From the NCBI GenBank assembly GCA_016213065.1, contig JACRBV010000055.1, positions 1-36,080 of the forward strand: a stretch of 36,080 nt of DNA, given 5' to 3'. The DNA is from Deltaproteobacteria bacterium (GTDB taxonomy: Bacteria > UBA10199 > SPLOWO2-01-44-7). The notes under the pieces were generated by a model, which saw only the letters and a list, made by a program, of their open reading frames with translations, was not told where the DNA came from and ran no database searches. Position 1 is the stretch's first letter. Each line of letters opens with the position of its first letter. Shown here in pieces: positions 6,421 through 20,429 of this stretch. A program made the translations under genes and the position numbers.

Positions 6421-7458
6421 ATGAACAGTCTTCAACGTTTTTCGAACGCCTGCTTTTGCAAGAACAAGGATCGCCCGCCGGTTTGGTTGATGCGGCAGGC
6501 GGGGCGGTTTCTGCCGGAGTATCGCGCCTTGAGGGAAAAACATGATTTCATGACGCTTCTCAAAACGGACGAACTCATCACGGAAGTTTCCCTGCAACCG
6601 TGGCGGCGTCTTCACATGGATGCGGTGATTGTTTTCGCCGACATTCTTCTTCTTCCGAATGTGATGGGGATGGAATTGAATTTTCTGGAAGGTCAAGGAC
6701 CGAAGTTTTCAAAACTCATTGCCTCACAAAAAGATATTGATGCACTCAAACCGGTTGAACCGAAAAAAGATATTCCCTTTTTGCTGAGTGCTCTTCGCAA
6801 CATCAGAAAAGAAATTAAAGAAGACGCCGCACTTCTTGGTTTTGCCGGAAGTCCGTGGACGGTGGCTTCGTATATAATGGATGATTTCGAAAACATCGGC
6901 AAAAAAAATCCGGAATTGTTGAAAAATACTTTGTCGCGGTTAACCCACGAAACCATTGTTTATCTTTCCGCAAAAGTGGATGCGGGTGTGGATGCCATTC
7001 AGATTTTTGACAGTTGGGGGGGGGTTCTCTCTCCGGAAGATTACCGCGTCTGGTCTGCTCCTTATATAAAGGAGATTGTCACAGCTTTGAAAAAGCGCGG
7101 CGTGCCGATCATTCTTTACGTGAAGGAGAGCGGACCACATCTTCAGACCATGATTGAAACTGGATGCGATGTTATTTCGATCGGATGGGAAACCTCTTTG
7201 GAGGAGGCCAAGAAAAAAGCGTTGGGCAAAACCGCCATTCAGGGAAATTTCAATCCACACATCCTAATGCAAGCGACACCCGACGAAATCCGGCAACAAA
7301 CTCAAATCATGTTAAAGACCATGCAAGACTATCCCGGCTACATCGCCAACCTAGGCCACGGCATTTTGCCCAAAACACCGGTGGAAAATGTGGAAGCATT
7401 CATAAAAAGCTGTCAGCGATCAGCTGTCAGCTTTCAGCAGGAAAAGATAAAACGATGA
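6421..7458 (+). CDS. hemE: Uroporphyrinogen decarboxylase
   Basis: Decarboxylates the four acetate side chains of uroporphyrinogen III to give coproporphyrinogen III in heme synthesis (cytoplasm). The N-terminal signature RPPVWLMRQAGRFLPEYR (residues 18-35) is complete, including the substrate-binding Arg pair. Also present are the active-site Asp in FADILLLP, the segment DAIQIFDSWGG near 190 and the C-terminal phrase NLGHGILP. The total of 345 residues is normal. The last ~16 residues (from CQRSAVSF) are encoded by the left inverted repeat of the S23 element, so the native C-terminus was probably replaced when that element arrived. The stop overlaps the start of the four-helix-bundle gene. 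hemH lies just beyond. Confidence 0.96.
   Translation: MNSLQRFSNACFCKNKDRPPVWLMRQAGRFLPEYRALREKHDFMTLLKTDELITEVSLQPWRRLHMDAVIVFADILLLPNVMGMELNFLEGQGPKFSKLIASQKDIDALKPVEPKKDIPFLLSALRNIRKEIKEDAALLGFAGSPWTVASYIMDDFENIGKKNPELLKNTLSRLTHETIVYLSAKVDAGVDAIQIFDSWGGVLSPEDYRVWSAPYIKEIVTALKKRGVPIILYVKESGPHLQTMIETGCDVISIGWETSLEEAKKKALGKTAIQGNFNPHILMQATPDEIRQQTQIMLKTMQDYPGYIANLGHGILPKTPVENVEAFIKSCQRSAVSFQQEKIKR
7408..7425 (+). repeat. Left inverted repeat of the S23 element
   Basis: AGCTGTCAGCGATCAGCT, an exact inverted match of 7802-7819. It lies in a wider stretch (7405-7440) built from variants of the unit CAGCTGTCAGC / CAGCTTTCAGC. It also encodes the last residues of HemE. Confidence 0.85.
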
Positions 7459-7814
7459 AAGATTTTAGGGAATTAAAAATTTGGGAGAAGAGCCACAAAT
7501 TGTCCTTATGCATTTACAAAATTACCAAAGACTTTCCCAAGGAGGAACTTTATGGACTTACAAGTCAAATTAGACGCGCTTGTACATCCATTGCCACTAA
7601 TATAGCAGAGGGCTGTGGAAGAGATAGTGATGCTGAACTCCATCGATTTCTTGTTATCGCAATGGGATCGGCAAGCGAAGTTGAGTACCTGCTTTTATTG
7701 TCGAACGATCTGAACCTGATACATAGAAGCAACTATCTTCAACTAAACGAGGACATTATTGAAATTAAACGCATGCTTGGGTCTTTTATTCAAAAGCTGA
7801 AAGCTGATCGCTGA
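7455..7814 (+). CDS. Four-helix-bundle protein of the S23 / 23S rRNA intervening-sequence family
   Basis: 119 residues of the family named after open frames found in 23S rRNA intervening sequences. The diagnostic order is present: FRELKIWEKSHKLSL, then TKDFPKEELYGLTSQIRRA, then SIATNIAEGCGR with FLVIAMGSASEVEYLL. The fold is a four-helix bundle and no activity is established for the family. The start ATG 7455 overlaps the hemE stop (ATGA). The frame is open further upstream inside hemE but that is an artefact. The gene is bracketed by 18-base inverted repeats and its stop codon lies in the right one. It looks like a small mobile passenger placed between two heme genes. Confidence 0.9.
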   Translation: MKDFRELKIWEKSHKLSLCIYKITKDFPKEELYGLTSQIRRACTSIATNIAEGCGRDSDAELHRFLVIAMGSASEVEYLLLLSNDLNLIHRSNYLQLNEDIIEIKRMLGSFIQKLKADR

Positions 7815-7819
7815 CAGCT
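7802..7819 (-). repeat. Right inverted repeat of the S23 element
   Basis: AGCTGATCGCTGACAGCT, the exact reverse complement of 7408-7425. The similar repeat-like stretch spans 7791-7828. It ends three bases before hemH and contains the stop of the four-helix-bundle gene. Confidence 0.85.
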
Positions 7820-7830
7820 GATAGCTTCTT

Positions 7831-8820
7831 ATGATCGCTGTATTTTTATTGGATTTTGGGGGGCCTGAGACGTTGGCGGATGTTCGGCCTTTTCTGAAAA
7901 ATCTTTTTTCTGATAAATCTATTTTCCCGATTCCGGGCGGAAAAATTGGTCAGAAAATTTTTTCCACACTTGTTTCCCGATTGCGCTCCAAACGCCTGAC
8001 GGAACAATATCGAAAAATTGGCGGAGGGTCTCCGCTTCCGAAACAATCGCGTGCCCTTGCCGCCAGTCTGGAAGAGGGTTTTCAAAAAGCCAATCTGGAT
8101 ATCCGTGTTTTTGTTGGAATGCGCTACACAAATCCCGACATTGAAGAAATGCTCCGCCAAATTTATTTTTTGAAACCGGAAGGGATGGTCGTCATTCCAA
8201 TGTTCCCTCAATATTCCACCGCCACAACCCTTTCTGTTTTTGAAGCTTTTGACCGAGCTTATGAAAAATTAAAATGCGCCATCCCCTTCCAAAAAATTGA
8301 TTCATGGCACGATCAACCCGACTTCATCGCAGGTTGGTGTTACAGCATCAAAAAGGGACTCGACGCCTTTGATCCTTCGATCCGCTCTCAAGTCGCCATT
8401 CTTTTTACAGCACACGGACTGCCGGTTTCTTTCGTCACCGAACGAAAGGACCCCTATCCGGAACAAATAAAAGAATGCGCCAAAAAAATTATGACGTATC
8501 TTGGAGGAGAAAATCCCGCCTATCTTTCGTATCAAAGTAAAGTGGGACCTGTTGAATGGTTAAAACCCGCAACGATCGATTTTGTAAAAGAGCTGGCCTC
8601 CAGAAGTGTTCGACACTTACTTATCGTGCCCATCAGTTTTTTGACGGATCATTTCGAAACGCTCTATGAAATAAACCATCTCATTATTCCGGAAGCGTTG
8701 AAGGCGGGCATGAAACAGGTGGTTCTCTGTGAAGCCCTCTGTCATGGGCCTTACCTGCGCAAAACGTTGGAGGAGTTGGTTTTAAAACGGTGGAATCACT
8801 TCGGGCATTTGCTCGGCTAA
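7831..8820 (+). CDS. hemH: Ferrochelatase
   Basis: Inserts Fe(II) into protoporphyrin IX, the last step of classical heme synthesis. 329 residues. Family signs are LLDFGGPETLADVRPFL at the N-terminus, GGGSPL near 66, FTAHGLPVSFV near 190 with the metal-binding His, YLSYQSKVGPVEWLKP near 231 and PISFLTDHFETLYEI near 265 with the second conserved His and Glu. It follows hemE, separated by the S23 element. Together they indicate a protoporphyrin-dependent heme route, with the genes for the intervening oxidations not in view. The 3' end overlaps the convergent 760-residue gene by 39 bases. A 16-base stretch at 8604-8619 resembles the REP core but encodes normal family sequence. Confidence 0.95.
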   Translation: MIAVFLLDFGGPETLADVRPFLKNLFSDKSIFPIPGGKIGQKIFSTLVSRLRSKRLTEQYRKIGGGSPLPKQSRALAASLEEGFQKANLDIRVFVGMRYTNPDIEEMLRQIYFLKPEGMVVIPMFPQYSTATTLSVFEAFDRAYEKLKCAIPFQKIDSWHDQPDFIAGWCYSIKKGLDAFDPSIRSQVAILFTAHGLPVSFVTERKDPYPEQIKECAKKIMTYLGGENPAYLSYQSKVGPVEWLKPATIDFVKELASRSVRHLLIVPISFLTDHFETLYEINHLIIPEALKAGMKQVVLCEALCHGPYLRKTLEELVLKRWNHFGHLLG

Positions 8821-11064
8821 AAATTTCCAACGTTCGCTATCAAAATCGGCGGCACGCATCACTTTTGCCAATTCATCCAGAGACAAACTATCTCTCAAAC
8901 CTTCCATGGCATCCGGCGTTTCCAAGCAATGTCTAATAAAAATTTCTGGTATTTCCGCTTCCTCCAAAGCATCTTTCAAATAGAAACGCCAAATTTCCAT
9001 CGCCGCTTTTTCATTTAGACGAACCGTTTCTCTGGAGGCCCCCACCACAACGCCTATTGCTTTCAAAATTTTTCGACCCCGATACCTCAAAAGAAAAGCC
9101 TCTTTTTGTTCCTGACTGACCGACGGATTTCTTAAAAACAGATAGATAGAATGTCCCACAGCCAATGTAAGTTGTTCTTCCTGTTCAGGATCTAAAACGT
9201 TTTGCAAACCCGCTCTTTCCCAAACTGGTGTCATTCCGCTATCAGCTTCTTTTGCAGTTGGATTATAAGGGAGCAAATGGCGCCTTTTTAATTCCGCTTT
9301 CGCGGCCCTTTGGGGGTCTAGATAGGAAGCATGTCGAACGCCAATTATTCTGGCAGTTACGTGTGCTTTCAAAAGAGTATTATTCTGCTTGAGAAATTTT
9401 CTTTCAAAAAAGAAATAAAAATACTTTCTGATAAATAAAAATAAATTGTTGCGCTGAGGGTTCCATTTGGTTTTTTTGAGAAACAAGGGAAGAGCCGCCC
9501 GCATTAAAAAACGTGTTTCCTCGTAATCAAGTTCAATACCCCTTCGGTGCCAAAGTTGGATAACCTTCCCTGTCATTCCCCGAATCAGACCATCCAACAT
9601 ATCCACGAGCATTTCCGCCGGCGTGTCTGGAGGCAATCCACCTGCCTCCATGATTTCAAAATCGTTTTCTCCCATCTCCAAAACTTGCAATCCCAATTCT
9701 TCAATGAACCAAAATCTTTTTTCTTTATCCGTGGGAGAAATGAAAGTGAGTTCCCTTTCAAAATCGGTCATCTCTAAAGGCCTCAATCCCAAAAATCCGT
9801 CGCTGCGAACAGTCAAGGAACCGCTTTTGACCAAAGGAATTTCCCGCAGACGTTTACTTACAGAATTTTTCCCGTCTCCCTCCACCCGCGTAATTTCATA
9901 TCGTTCCTTTCCCCATTGTCTAATTCGAACAAGACCGTAGTGACGTTCTTTGTTCGCTCCTCCAGCAACAAAGGGAACAACATTGTTTAAAATATCACCA
10001 CTGCTCGGCATATATTGAAGATCAATCTCTTTTGGTCTTTTGCCGCCATTCCTTTTGGCGACCGCATCAAACCAGTCATCAATATCCGCAAGACGGAGTT
10101 CATCCAGATCGCCCAGTCGCAAACTTTTTAAACCCAAAAATCCGTCATTACGAATAAACAAGGCGCCGCTTTTTGCCGCTTCGGAATCGCGCAATGCCTG
10201 AACGGCTTTTTGTCCTCCATGACCAGCGGCTGTGAATACTTCGTATTTTCCTTCAGCCGTTCGTCGTAAATGTAGACGCGCATAATGACGATCTTTATTA
10301 TCTTCGCTGAGCAGAATGGGCTGGAAAGAATAAAAAACTCCTCCTTGAATTAAAAATTGAACGCAAATAGTTTCAGGCACACCCAAAACATCAAACCATT
10401 CTTTGATCTGAGCAGTCGTAATATTTTTGAAGTCATTAAACGTTTTGGGTTTCCAATATTCCCCCAAAACCCACCCACCCAAATGATAACGCAGAAAATG
10501 GCGGTCAACGATTTTGGAAAGAGTTTTTATAAGAGCAAGACGATCATTCCCACGTTCTGGAAATTTTCCATCTTTTATATACTGCTTGAAAAGGGCGCCA
10601 CTTGTGGGAACAGATGCCATTTCTCCATGCATATCTTCTAAAAATTTTCGAATAGTTTGCCAAACAATCCTTTCTCCATCCACTAAATTTCTGGGAGCGG
10701 CGGGAAAAACAGTTTGTGTTGCCCGCGCCAGCAAAGCGGCGGTTGGAGGAGTGCGACTAAATCGCGTTGCAGTGGGAGAAGCGGAACTCCCAGAACGTCT
10801 TATAATTTCTGCGTAAAGCGCTCGATGATTTTGGATCATCTCCATCATGCGTGTGCGCAATTGGTCGGTGGGAAGAGTTCCATGTTGATAGGCATCGGTA
10901 GCGGCCTTCCATTGTTCCAACAATGGAACCGCACCATCAGACACCACAATTCCCGAATCTCCCGCCGCTGGGACAAACTCCGCCAAAGCATTTGCCACCA
11001 TTTCTATTTGCATCGCAAGTGGCATGGTTTCAAAGCCGACAATTTGTACACTTGGTAACGCCAT
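8782..11064 (-). CDS. Orphan 760-residue protein: two tandem ~105-residue repeats and a sigma-70-like C-terminal half
   Basis: I place the start at ATG 11064, preceded by AGGTGGAG at six bases. A GTG four codons upstream (11076) is the alternative. In numbering from the GTG, residues ~218-325 and ~326-440 are tandem repeats: each has an IKEWFD/IDDWFD opening, a KDRHYARL/KERHYGLV strand and a closing SGALFIRNDGFLGL/SGSLTVRSDGFLGL. Residues ~515-570 (RAALPLF, KWNPQRNNLFLFIRKYF) recall sigma region 2 with its DPxRG...F..Y pattern. Residues ~655-697 recall sigma region 4: QKEAFLLRY, then a helix-turn-helix ending in GASRETVRLNEKAAMEIWRF. No catalytic motif or signal peptide is visible. It has its own sigma-28-type promoter. 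A regulatory, DNA- or RNA-polymerase-contacting role is inference. Confidence 0.78.
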   Translation of the reverse strand: MALPSVQIVGFETMPLAMQIEMVANALAEFVPAAGDSGIVVSDGAVPLLEQWKAATDAYQHGTLPTDQLRTRMMEMIQNHRALYAEIIRRSGSSASPTATRFSRTPPTAALLARATQTVFPAAPRNLVDGERIVWQTIRKFLEDMHGEMASVPTSGALFKQYIKDGKFPERGNDRLALIKTLSKIVDRHFLRYHLGGWVLGEYWKPKTFNDFKNITTAQIKEWFDVLGVPETICVQFLIQGGVFYSFQPILLSEDNKDRHYARLHLRRTAEGKYEVFTAAGHGGQKAVQALRDSEAAKSGALFIRNDGFLGLKSLRLGDLDELRLADIDDWFDAVAKRNGGKRPKEIDLQYMPSSGDILNNVVPFVAGGANKERHYGLVRIRQWGKERYEITRVEGDGKNSVSKRLREIPLVKSGSLTVRSDGFLGLRPLEMTDFERELTFISPTDKEKRFWFIEELGLQVLEMGENDFEIMEAGGLPPDTPAEMLVDMLDGLIRGMTGKVIQLWHRRGIELDYEETRFLMRAALPLFLKKTKWNPQRNNLFLFIRKYFYFFFERKFLKQNNTLLKAHVTARIIGVRHASYLDPQRAAKAELKRRHLLPYNPTAKEADSGMTPVWERAGLQNVLDPEQEEQLTLAVGHSIYLFLRNPSVSQEQKEAFLLRYRGRKILKAIGVVVGASRETVRLNEKAAMEIWRFYLKDALEEAEIPEIFIRHCLETPDAMEGLRDSLSLDELAKVMRAADFDSERWKFLAEQMPEVIPPF

Positions 11065-11081
11065 TTGGTTCTCCACCTATC

Positions 11082-11107
11082 TATCGGCAAATCCCAAAAA
11101 AAGTTGC
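11082..11107 (-). promoter_or_regulatory. Sigma-28-type promoter, site B
   Basis: Minus strand: GCAACTTT, 11 bases, GCCGATA. Full match to the window consensus, including seven consecutive T. The predicted start near 11074 leaves a leader of only ~10 nt that keeps GGAG but cuts the 5' half of the AGGTGGAG ribosome-binding site. The real start may therefore be a few bases closer to the -10, or translation may be almost leaderless. Confidence 0.78.
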
Positions 11108-15232: not shown

Positions 15233-16339
15233 ATGGAGGCGACGAATTTAAACAAATATATGATTCGAGTCGCCGTTCCCAAAGAAATTAGCCAAGGAGA
15301 AAAGCGGGTTGCCCTCGTTCCGGAGGTGGCCGGTCGTTTAGTCAAAGCCGGTTTTGAAATCCGCGTGGAATCATCCGCTGGTCTTGCCGCCCATTTCCCC
15401 GACGAACAATACACAAATGTCGGCGTTAAAATCATCAAAGACACTTCTGAACTTTATAACGGAGCGCAAATTATTTTGAAGGTACAATCTCCCAAAATGG
15501 AGGAGATCGATTTTTTCCCGGAAGGCGCCTTTTTGATTGGTTTGTTAACACCTCACCGCCTGAAAGAAGAACTGGAATTATTCAAACAGAAAAAAATCAC
15601 GGCGTTTGCACTTGAAAAACTGCCGCGCATCACTCGCGCACAATCAATGGACGTGCTTTCTTCGCAGGCTACGGTTGCGGGCTATAAAGCCGTGCTCATC
15701 GCGGCAAACATAAGCAATCGCTTTTTCCCAATGCTTACCACGGCGGCGGGCACCATTCGTCCGGCAAAAGTTTTGATTTTGGGTGCGGGCGTGGCCGGCT
15801 TGCAAGCTATTGCCACATCTAAGCGGTTGGGTGCCATCGTGGAAGCCTATGACGTCCGCAGGGCAGTCAAAGAACAAGTGCTTTCCCTTGGTGCAAAATT
15901 TTTGGAAATCCCGGTGGATGCAGAAGCACAGGGAGGTTATGCGCGCGAATTGACGGAAGAAGAAAAAAAGGCGGAAAGCACGATGCTCTCCAAACATGTG
16001 GCGGTGTCTGATGTAGTTATCACCACCGCCCAAGTGCCGGGCCGTCCCGCTCCGCGCTTGTTGACAAAAGAAATGGTCGCTCAAATGAAACCGGGTTCTG
16101 TGATCGTTGATATGGCGGCCGAATCGGGCGGAAATTGTGAGCTCACAAAAGCAGGAGAAGTCATCAATCAAAATGGAGTGCGAATTGAAGGTCCCGTCAA
16201 TCTGCCCAGCGCATTGTCCGTGCACGCCAGCGAAATGGTCGCCAAAAATATTTTTAACTTTCTGATGCTGTTGACCAAAGATGGAAAATCGCTGGAACCT
16301 GATTGGAGCGATGAAGTTATCGCCGGAGGAAAATTATAA
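15233..16339 (+). CDS. pntA: NAD(P) transhydrogenase alpha subunit, part 1 (soluble NAD-binding domain)
   Basis: Soluble dI domain of the proton-translocating transhydrogenase, which drives NADPH formation from NADH using the proton gradient. 368 residues. Visible: VAVPKEISQGEKRVALVPEV near 12, LLTPHR near 100, SMDVLSSQATVAGY near 138, the Rossmann motif LGAGVAGLQAIATSKRLGA near 180 and a D-V-R (AYDVRRAVKEQ) near 206. The start is uncertain. ATG 15233 has no ribosome-binding site, and ATG 15260 (MIRVAVPKE) fits the usual family N-terminus better. It is the first gene of a three-gene operon with a one-base overlap to the next. Confidence 0.93.
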   Translation: MEATNLNKYMIRVAVPKEISQGEKRVALVPEVAGRLVKAGFEIRVESSAGLAAHFPDEQYTNVGVKIIKDTSELYNGAQIILKVQSPKMEEIDFFPEGAFLIGLLTPHRLKEELELFKQKKITAFALEKLPRITRAQSMDVLSSQATVAGYKAVLIAANISNRFFPMLTTAAGTIRPAKVLILGAGVAGLQAIATSKRLGAIVEAYDVRRAVKEQVLSLGAKFLEIPVDAEAQGGYARELTEEEKKAESTMLSKHVAVSDVVITTAQVPGRPAPRLLTKEMVAQMKPGSVIVDMAAESGGNCELTKAGEVINQNGVRIEGPVNLPSALSVHASEMVAKNIFNFLMLLTKDGKSLEPDWSDEVIAGGKL

Positions 16340-16632
16340 TGGAAGGGATTTGGGCCGCACTTTATATTTTTGTTCTCGCCGCGTTCACCGGTTATGAAGT
16401 CATCGGTCGTGTGCCCGTAATTTTGCACACACCTTTGATGTCCGGATCCAACTTTATTCACGGTATTGTGCTGGTGGGAAGCATGGTGGTTTTGGGGCAT
16501 GCCGATTCTTTGCCGGAACAGATCATCGGTTTTATCGGTGTTTTGCTGGGAGCGGTCAATGCCGCCGGCGGATTCGCCGTAACGGAGCGCATGTTGCAGA
16601 TGTTCGAAAAAAACAAACGTCATAAGGAATAG
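16339..16632 (+). CDS. NAD(P) transhydrogenase alpha subunit, part 2 (membrane)
   Basis: 97 residues carrying the short membrane part of the alpha subunit, which in this lineage is a separate chain. Three hydrophobic segments are visible (about residues 5-20, 40-55 and 60-78), with the family phrases FTGYEVIGRVP and HTPLMSGSNFIHGIVLVG. Its ATG shares one base with the TAA of the first gene, with GGAGGA upstream. The gap to pntB is four bases. The three-chain split (dI / short membrane part / beta) is a known arrangement in many bacteria. Confidence 0.92.
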   Translation: MEGIWAALYIFVLAAFTGYEVIGRVPVILHTPLMSGSNFIHGIVLVGSMVVLGHADSLPEQIIGFIGVLLGAVNAAGGFAVTERMLQMFEKNKRHKE

Positions 16633-18008: not shown

Positions 18009-19598
18009 TTAAAAAGAAAGAGTGGACAATGAATGTAAATCTGCGTCTGCCTCTCCCGTCCTTGCTACAAGGACATCGGCATAAGGTGCACAATCTTGAT
18101 AATGCACACTGAGTTTAAAACCCGGAATGATTAAGTCTACTTGATAAGCCGCTCTGGAAACGGGTCTCGGCGGAATTCTTTCATATGCACTCGCCACGAT
18201 ATAATCGACCATTGACGTGACCCCTCTCTCTGCAACTCCAATAATAATTGTGTCATTCGTGGTGAAAAAAGCCTCACCGCCCACAGCCAAAGAATCCATC
18301 CCAAGTCTGATGGCATTTAATTTATCTTCGCCATGAAACGCCGGTCCCATGATATCTAGAAAGATATCTGCGCCACGCATTTTAGCGGGCAAAGTGCCAA
18401 TGGTAGTAACATCCCGAACAAGCTGTCCCGCATAGACTCCGTCGTCTGCGACAACGGGATAGAGAGAAACATTAAATATTTCCACAGCCCTTCCATAAAG
18501 TTTTTTGAGACCTCTGGCAGTACCACCGTCACCATCGCCAGCGATCACTATTTTTACCGGCCTTTGCGTCGCCGCATATTTGGCCTCTATTATTTTTCTA
18601 AGATTAAAACCAGTTCCATCTAGGTATTTCCCAATATTTTCATCAAGACTTCGGCCGGTTATGTAGCCCGTGCTAAATGTTCTCCTAAGCCTCAATCGCC
18701 GTTCCATTTGGATTGCTCGCACGGCATCCTCGTTTAGCTGATCATTTCTTACGAGCCAATCGAATGTTTTTCTGGGAATCGTAGCCCGCAAATTCTCGCC
18801 CTTGACCACGACATATCCCGCCTGCTCCACAACTTGGTATCCACGGGTAGCCAAATTTTTTGCCGCATTTGTTGCATCAACCGAAAGAGACGAAACCGCG
18901 ACCGCTGTTTCGCCACCTGATAAAAGTGCCGCGCCCTTTAGATTAACAATACCTTTCGGAACCAGAGGAAGCGACAGAGTAAGTATTACGCCTCCTTTGC
19001 ACATTCCCATCTCCGCCCTATCTTTTTCGGCTTGGTCATCTGCATCATAATAATCAACGGCATTTTTTGTAAAAAGCGTTCCACCAATCACAGGCACCGC
19101 AAGTAAAAGCCCTCCGAGAAGCATCGCGGCACCGATCGCAACCCATGTTCCCGGAAAAACTGCAATCAAGAGTGTACCCACCCCAACAGCGGCAAGACCG
19201 CCTGCGGCATATCGAAGCGTATTGGCATCGAAATCAAGCACTTCACCTACTCCCTGATAACAAGGTGAAGGGATTGAACTCAATGTCCCGGGTAATTGCG
19301 TTTGGAAATTATCGAATAGACGATTGTAGGTGGCAAAGGACGTTGTTCTTTGCATTTCCTCTCTAAACATCTTTGAAACGGTCCAACGAAGGTCCGGATA
19401 CAGTCGGCCCAATGAGGTCCTTGCATCAGGAGAAAGCCTTTCGTATACGGCACTGTCGAACTCTGCAAATTTCCCCGCCACGACAACCTCTTTTAAAATT
19501 TCCGAGGCCTCATCGCGCTCAACAACGTGCACCAAGCTCCGATTACGATTCGTAACTTCAATATAGCGTGCCGCCAATTGTTCAATTGAATTAGTCAA
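18009..19598 (-). CDS. Orphan 529-residue membrane protein with methyltransferase-like C-terminal domain
   Basis: The start is TTG 19598. It is the first possible start after an in-frame stop and has GAGGTG eight bases upstream. Residues 1-125 are helical with no recognised family. Residues ~130-175 are two adjacent membrane segments rich in Gly/Ala/Leu. Residues 346-445 look like a class I SAM-dependent methyltransferase: VKIVIAGDGDGGTARGL as motif I, FNVSLYPVV next, then ADIFLDIMG and LGMDSLAVGGEAFFTT as the post-I/motif III region. The Asp-rich motif I is atypical, so activity is uncertain. No signal peptide precedes the membrane pair. The gene has its own sigma-28-type promoter (site D) and sits alone. 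No substrate can be proposed. Confidence 0.78.
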   Translation of the reverse strand: MTNSIEQLAARYIEVTNRNRSLVHVVERDEASEILKEVVVAGKFAEFDSAVYERLSPDARTSLGRLYPDLRWTVSKMFREEMQRTTSFATYNRLFDNFQTQLPGTLSSIPSPCYQGVGEVLDFDANTLRYAAGGLAAVGVGTLLIAVFPGTWVAIGAAMLLGGLLLAVPVIGGTLFTKNAVDYYDADDQAEKDRAEMGMCKGGVILTLSLPLVPKGIVNLKGAALLSGGETAVAVSSLSVDATNAAKNLATRGYQVVEQAGYVVVKGENLRATIPRKTFDWLVRNDQLNEDAVRAIQMERRLRLRRTFSTGYITGRSLDENIGKYLDGTGFNLRKIIEAKYAATQRPVKIVIAGDGDGGTARGLKKLYGRAVEIFNVSLYPVVADDGVYAGQLVRDVTTIGTLPAKMRGADIFLDIMGPAFHGEDKLNAIRLGMDSLAVGGEAFFTTNDTIIIGVAERGVTSMVDYIVASAYERIPPRPVSRAAYQVDLIIPGFKLSVHYQDCAPYADVLVARTGEADADLHSLSTLSF

Positions 19599-19633
19599 TA
19601 GATATACACCTCAAAGTCCCCCTCTACATCTGT

Positions 19634-19659
19634 TATCGGCAATTTTCAAAAAAAGTTGC
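19634..19659 (-). promoter_or_regulatory. Sigma-28-type promoter, site D
   Basis: Minus strand: GCAACTTT, 11 bases, GCCGATAA. This is the best match of the five to the FliA -10, with the eighth base A. The predicted start near 19626 gives a ~28-nt leader containing the GAGGTG that selects the TTG start codon of the 529-residue gene. Confidence 0.8.
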
Positions 19660-20379: not shown

Positions 20380-20405
20380 CAACTTTTTGTCCTCTTCCGC
20401 CGATA
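20379..20405 (+). promoter_or_regulatory. Sigma-28-type promoter, site E (one base longer spacer)
   Basis: GCAACTTT, 12 bases, GCCGATAA. The T-run is interrupted (TTTTTGT) and the spacer is one base longer than in the other four. The first G is the last base of the hemolysin III stop codon. The predicted start near 20413 gives a ~59-nt leader to the M48 peptidase gene. Activity may be weaker because of the spacer. Confidence 0.6.
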
Positions 20406-20429
20406 ACAATAATGAAGACCTTCGACAAT

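What the first reader, a model, noticed from the sequence alone, without database searches (positions are those of the whole stretch)
8782..11064. Giant divergent sigma-like protein with duplicated N-terminal domain, itself under a sigma-28-type promoter
The last third resembles sigma-70 regions 2 and 4 (KWNPQRNNLFLFIRKYF; then an HTH ending in GASRETVRLNEKAAMEIW), but the protein is 760 residues long and carries two ~105-residue repeats not known to me from sigma factors. If real, it would be a second-tier regulator in a sigma cascade or a decoy/anti-sigma derived from one.
Basis: partly seen in the sequence, partly recalled or inferred. Interest (0 to 1): 0.72.

Follow-up and report, generated by a model that had tools for sequence, protein, structure and literature searches.

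The report
Sigma-derived mosaic protein, type-III-linked regulon
This gene makes a large patchwork protein whose last third descends from bacterial sigma factors (the proteins that tell RNA polymerase where to start), and its promoter belongs to a set that appears to be read by a different sigma factor encoded inside a type III secretion cluster, so it may be either an unusual regulator or a sigma-like protein made for export.

Summary
The minus-strand ORF at 8782-11064 (760 aa) has a C-terminal core related to sigma70 regions 2 and 4: profile-profile P about 1e-8 over 208 columns against RpoD/RpoH, reversed controls 0.7-0.8. It carries two real tandem repeats (108 and 113 aa) and a near-consensus sigma28-type promoter. 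Relatives were found only in its own bacterial family, where the repeats number 2-4 and lie before or after the core.

The promoter, (G)CAACTTTTT-N9-GCCGATAA, recurs across the class (36 of 46 genomes) and precedes most of the related genes. The genome's only FliA/WhiG-type sigma gene lies inside a non-flagellar type III secretion cluster, and no flagellin was found in the family. Proteins with this promoter tend to have charge-poor, small-residue-rich N-termini, as this one does.

So it is a sigma70-derived mosaic protein in a type-III-linked regulon. Whether it acts at home as a divergent sigma or is exported is undecided; I lean slightly to export. The repeats match no known family; the closest folds are gelsolin/ADF-like, not significantly.

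The parts
8782..11064 (-). Coding sequence of the sigma-derived mosaic protein (760 aa, ATG at 11064, stop at 8782-8784)
   Evidence: syntenic orthologue L011:8192-11425 in G003
11081..11107 (-). Promoter GCAACTTTTTTTGGGATTTGCCGATAG: -35 element (G)CAACTTTTT, 9 nt, sigma28-type -10 GCCGATA(G)
   Evidence: PWM score 36.1, maximum of 2000 shuffled stretches 12.5
11071..11077 (-). Likely ribosome-binding site GGTGGAG
   Evidence: read from the sequence
10960..11064 (-). Charge-poor hydrophobic/Ala-rich N-terminal leader (residues 1-35, MALPSVQIVGFETMPLAMQIEMVANALAEFVPAAG)
   Evidence: composition of promoter-bearing proteins against the rest
10435..10710 (-). Helical, HTH-like domain (residues 119-210), shared with L011 and L013
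   Evidence: weak MerR-type match on the orthologue, E=0.03
10093..10416 (-). Repeat 1 (residues 217-324)
9754..10092 (-). Repeat 2 (residues 325-437)
9385..9609 (-). Stretch resembling sigma region 2 (about residues 486-560), with an invariant Tyr-Phe pair about where E. coli sigma70 has Trp433-Trp434
   Evidence: the residue correspondence is read by eye
8965..9147 (-). Stretch resembling sigma region 4 (about residues 640-700), helix-turn-helix
8785..8901 (-). Conserved C-terminal segment (about residues 722-760, SLDELAKVMRAADFDSERWKFL), found in most relatives

Best explanation
The gene encodes a lineage-specific mosaic protein: a charge-poor leader, a helical HTH-like domain, two copies of a new alpha/beta repeat, and a diverged sigma70-derived core (regions 2 and 4, closest to the RpoD/RpoH group) with its own C-terminal tail. 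It carries the promoter of a class-wide set whose probable reader is a FliA/WhiG-type sigma encoded inside a non-flagellar type III secretion cluster (shown: the promoter motif and the position of that sigma gene; inferred from the GCCGATAA -10: that this sigma reads it). I think it slightly more likely than the rivals that the protein is a substrate of that secretion system, its sigma-derived core acting on RNA polymerase or promoter DNA wherever it ends up (export and target are both inferred, not shown).
For: Sigma core. The promoter recurs class-wide with almost no reversed-control hits and precedes the window gene, L012, L013, L015, L060 and the first gene of the L014 operon, all above the shuffle maximum. 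The FliA/WhiG-type sigma shares a contig in the window's own genome with SctV above its curated cut-off, a YscJ-family and a YscD-type ring protein; in G003 the same cluster has SctN above cut-off plus SctJ, SctL and a SctG-like chaperone. Flagellin was found in 0 of 6 genomes of the family although the export gate is present in all 6. Promoter-bearing proteins have fewer charges in residues 2-26 (0.157 against 0.231, p=8.5e-5) and more A/G/S/T/P, with no charge difference at residues 61-85 (p=0.90). The protein diverges much faster than its syntenic neighbours (34% against 67-84% identity for the larger ones), and repeat number and domain order vary.
Against: There is no export evidence; N-terminal composition is only a statistical hint. 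Several proteins with the promoter look ordinary and cytoplasmic (PP2C-like, PilZ-like) or carry Sec/lipoprotein-like signals in other families. The closest orthologue, L011, lacks the promoter. A leader profile did not generalise beyond its seeds. DNA-binding folds are natural for a cytoplasmic regulator.
Confidence: 0.45

Rival explanations
1. A cytoplasmic second-tier sigma factor or regulator: made under the FliA-type sigma, it binds the cell's own RNA polymerase and directs a further set of genes, with the repeats and HTH-like domain sensing a signal or placing it on DNA.
For: Sigma2 and sigma4 regions both recognisable; the orthologue L011 keeps a recognition helix close to RpoD (VRERIRRIE); the genome has only two other sigma70-type factors.
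Against: No target promoter class was found; the recognition helix is poorly conserved between relatives and region 2.2 lacks the usual motif (by eye); charge-poor leader and fast divergence.
Confidence: 0.35
2. A sigma-derived protein that has lost transcription initiation and works as a decoy, anti-sigma or other binding protein for RNA polymerase or another sigma.
For: Very low similarity to sigma factors; degenerate recognition helix in L015; region 3 apparently reduced.
Against: Invariant positions span both region 2 and region 4 in all five relatives, including a Tyr-Phe pair in the segment that melts promoters in sigma70, which a decoy would not need.
Confidence: 0.15
3. A decaying or chance reading frame.
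For: Only that identity between relatives is low.
Against: Open frames of 618-1158 aa in four further genomes, a syntenic orthologue, a shared promoter, and dN/dS of 0.42-0.76 between repeat copies in L013.
Confidence: 0.02

Closest known systems
Group 1/2 sigma70 factors (RpoD, RpoH)
   Same: Regions 2 and 4 in the same order; hhalign P about 1e-8 over 208 columns; best fold matches
   Different: 16% identity over the sigma4 alignment; region 3 apparently reduced; extra repeats, HTH-like domain and leader; RNA polymerase binding unknown
FliA/WhiG (sigma28) regulons
   Same: -10 box GCCGATAA and a FliA/WhiG-type sigma in the genome
   Different: -35 is (G)CAACTTTTT, not TAAA; the sigma gene sits in a non-flagellar type III cluster; no flagellin found; the window protein itself is not FliA-like (no hhalign match)
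Campylobacter Fed proteins (sigma28-dependent for production and secretion; PMC5223770)
   Same: A sigma28-type sigma controls non-structural proteins coupled to a type III apparatus
   Different: Export is shown there and only inferred here; flagellar there, non-flagellar here; no sequence relation was tested
Gelsolin/villin/ADF-H fold (for the repeats)
   Same: About 110-residue tandem units with a four-stranded antiparallel sheet plus helices; 7 of the top 8 Foldseek hits belong to this fold group
   Different: E at least 0.027 and TM at most 0.43, not significant; no Pfam match
Non-flagellar type III system of Myxococcus xanthus (PMC10849154)
   Same: A non-flagellar type III system reported to act on bacterial prey
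   Different: No predation evidence here; no sigma-like substrate described in the passages read

Membership tests
Sigma70 family | Region 2 domain | tested here: met
   Aligned in register over 76 columns, P=0.001 alone against 0.47 for the reversed control; full-core fold matches are sigma chains. Weak when taken alone.
Sigma70 family | Region 4 helix-turn-helix | tested here: met
   hhalign P=8e-8; PDB RpoD sigma4 E=8e-4. The single protein stays below Pfam's cut-off (20.1 against 24.1 bits).
Sigma70 family | Conserved region 2.2 and recognition-helix residues | tested here: inconclusive
   Recognition helix close to RpoD in L011, eroded in L015; region 2.2 diverged; Tyr-Phe pair invariant (by eye)
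Sigma70 family | Binds core RNA polymerase and directs promoter-specific initiation | not testable with these tools
   Needs purified protein
FliA/WhiG-type regulon | Sigma28-type promoter upstream | tested here: met
   recognition by the FliA-type sigma itself is inferred
Type III secretion substrate | Charge-poor N-terminal signal | tested here: inconclusive
   Composition test p=8.5e-5 for the promoter-bearing set; leader profile did not generalise
Type III secretion substrate | Secreted by the apparatus | not testable with these tools
   Needs an export assay
Gelsolin/ADF-H repeats | Significant fold or sequence match | tested here: not met
   Foldseek E at least 0.027; no Pfam match

The most novel reading that the evidence does not exclude
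A sigma-factor-derived protein that is a substrate of a type III secretion system, sent out to act on the transcription of another cell, in a lineage that has repeatedly given DNA-binding or sigma-like mosaics (also L060, L013) the same promoter and the same kind of N-terminus.
Probability: 0.25. Interest if true: 0.9.

Novelty: new variant of a known kind. Interest (0 to 1): 0.62.

Why it matters
A sigma70 core has been recruited into a fast-evolving, repeat-bearing mosaic protein and placed under a sigma28-type promoter in bacteria whose FliA/WhiG-type sigma is tied to a non-flagellar type III system. If it is a working sigma, it is the second tier of a new cascade; if exported, it would be the first sigma-derived type III substrate I know of (own knowledge, not a literature survey). 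Either way the class-wide promoter lets the candidate members of this regulon be listed from sequence.

Tried and rejected
Phage or plasmid origin: no relatives in phage, plasmid or viral collections, and the neighbours are syntenic chromosomal genes. A FliA-like origin of the core: no profile match to the FliA group. Naming the organism through genome contigs: the first query found nothing, the second named only the relative G003. A leader HMM: recovered its seeds and little else. Viral fold search of the repeats: nothing significant. Repeats outside this family: none in 46 genomes. Hemagglutinin hits: chance. A search for papers on sigma-like type III effectors gave nothing on point.

Full report
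The observation. The ORF at 8782-11064 lies on the minus strand and encodes 760 aa from ATG 11064. Its last codons overlap the convergent ferrochelatase gene (7831-8820), and it is divergent from an acyl-CoA dehydrogenase gene.

Sigma relationship. Single-protein evidence is weak (Pfam Sigma70_r4 E=0.011), so I collected relatives. Among the 40 nearest genomes only members of the same family hit: G003 (two genes), G004, G005, and G001, whose gene has the HTH-like domain and repeats but no sigma core. One G003 gene (L011) is the syntenic orthologue: the main neighbours are 67-84% identical to those in the window, the protein itself about 34%. The alignment of the cores (A1) hits RpoD sigma4 in the PDB at E=8e-4, with a sub-threshold match to region 2.3 in register. 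hhalign against RpoD/RpoH sequences from these genomes gives P about 1e-8 over 208 columns, sigma4 alone 8e-8, sigma2 alone 0.001; reversed controls give 0.37-0.76 and there is no match to the FliA group. The AlphaFold model of the core (mean pLDDT 77, pTM 0.44) is all-helical, and its 19 best Foldseek PDB matches are chains from RNA polymerase initiation complexes or sigma-RNAP models; E-values are not below 0.05 and TM-scores are low, which fits domains placed differently but also means the fold search alone would not settle the matter. Region 2 is the weaker half of the case.

Repeats. Residues 217-324 and 325-437 align with score 164 against a shuffle maximum of 48. L011 and L013 have four copies each; C-terminal units in L012, L014 and L015 are weakly related (hhalign P=3e-4). 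No other genome among 46 has them. The model (pLDDT 82) shows helix, four antiparallel strands, helix and a short strand per unit. Seven of the eight best PDB matches are gelsolin, villin or ADF domains or complexes with them, but at E 0.027 or worse.

Promoter and regulon. A sigma28-like scan of the window revealed a recurring element, (G)CAACTTTTT-N9-GCCGATA. The genome has 13 exact copies against 1 for the reversed control, four of them in this window, and 36 of 46 genomes in the class have it with very few control hits. It scores above the maximum of 2000 shuffled stretches upstream of the window gene, L012, L013, L015, L060 and the first gene of the L014 operon, but not L011. The genome's sigma70-type factors are RpoD, one FliA/WhiG-type factor and this protein. 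The FliA/WhiG-type gene lies on a contig with SctV (790 bits, cut-off 692), a YscJ-family ring protein and an FHA/YscD-type ring protein; SctL- and SctN-like ORFs follow it (by eye, L172). The equivalent G003 cluster has SctN above its cut-off, SctJ at 5e-34, SctL and a SctG-like chaperone. Flagellin was found in none of the 6 family genomes and in 4 of 46 in the class, while the export gate is in 44 of 46. That this sigma reads this promoter is inferred from the -10 box.

The N-terminus. Among 722 predicted ORFs from G003 stretches and the window, the 37 with the promoter have fewer charges in residues 2-26 (0.157 against 0.231, p=8.5e-5) and more small residues (p=1e-5); residues 61-85 do not differ in charge. 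Starts were chosen by rule, so this is a statistical hint, not a signal prediction, and a leader profile did not generalise.

How it works. Shown: a sigma70-derived core, new repeats, a shared sigma28-type promoter, and a type III cluster carrying the likely sigma gene. Inferred: that the FliA-type sigma drives it, that it is exported, and that the core still touches RNA polymerase or promoter DNA. Precedents for sigma28-dependent secreted proteins (Campylobacter Feds, PMC5223770) and for a non-flagellar type III system acting on bacterial prey (PMC10849154) make the export reading reasonable, not proven. I give export 0.45, a home-acting sigma 0.35 and a decoy 0.15.

Taxonomy. The relative G003 is MAG Deltaproteobacteria bacterium RIFCSPHIGHO2_01_FULL_43_49. 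From memory I suspect the GTDB class UBA10199, but this was not verified.

Noticed in passing
window:13808-13834 (+), 19633-19659 (-), 20380-20406 (+): Three more copies of the same promoter, upstream of a PilZ-like ORF (13889), a 529-aa ORF (18009-19598) and a metallopeptidase-like ORF (20472). Four of the genome's 13 exact copies are in this 36 kb.
   Followed up: partly
L171:133-2295 and 18221-19060; L172: Non-flagellar type III secretion cluster with an embedded FliA/WhiG-type sigma gene, in a family where no flagellin was found.
   Followed up: partly
L060:463-1917: Another mosaic in G001: HTH-like segments followed by an ECF-like sigma2 region, with a charge-poor N-terminus and a weaker copy of the promoter (score 17.9).
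   Followed up: partly
L013:10583-14059: 1158-aa protein with the HTH-like domain and four closely similar repeats but no sigma core; the 500 residues before them match no family.
   Followed up: no
L012:13324-15114, 15587-16435, 6844-8259: Proteins with radical-SAM, class-I amidotransferase and TPR matches and charge-poor N-termini beside the sigma-like paralogue.
   Followed up: no
window:4957-6417: Two neighbouring nucleotidyltransferase/HEPN-like gene pairs (MNT/HepT toxin-antitoxin look).
   Followed up: no
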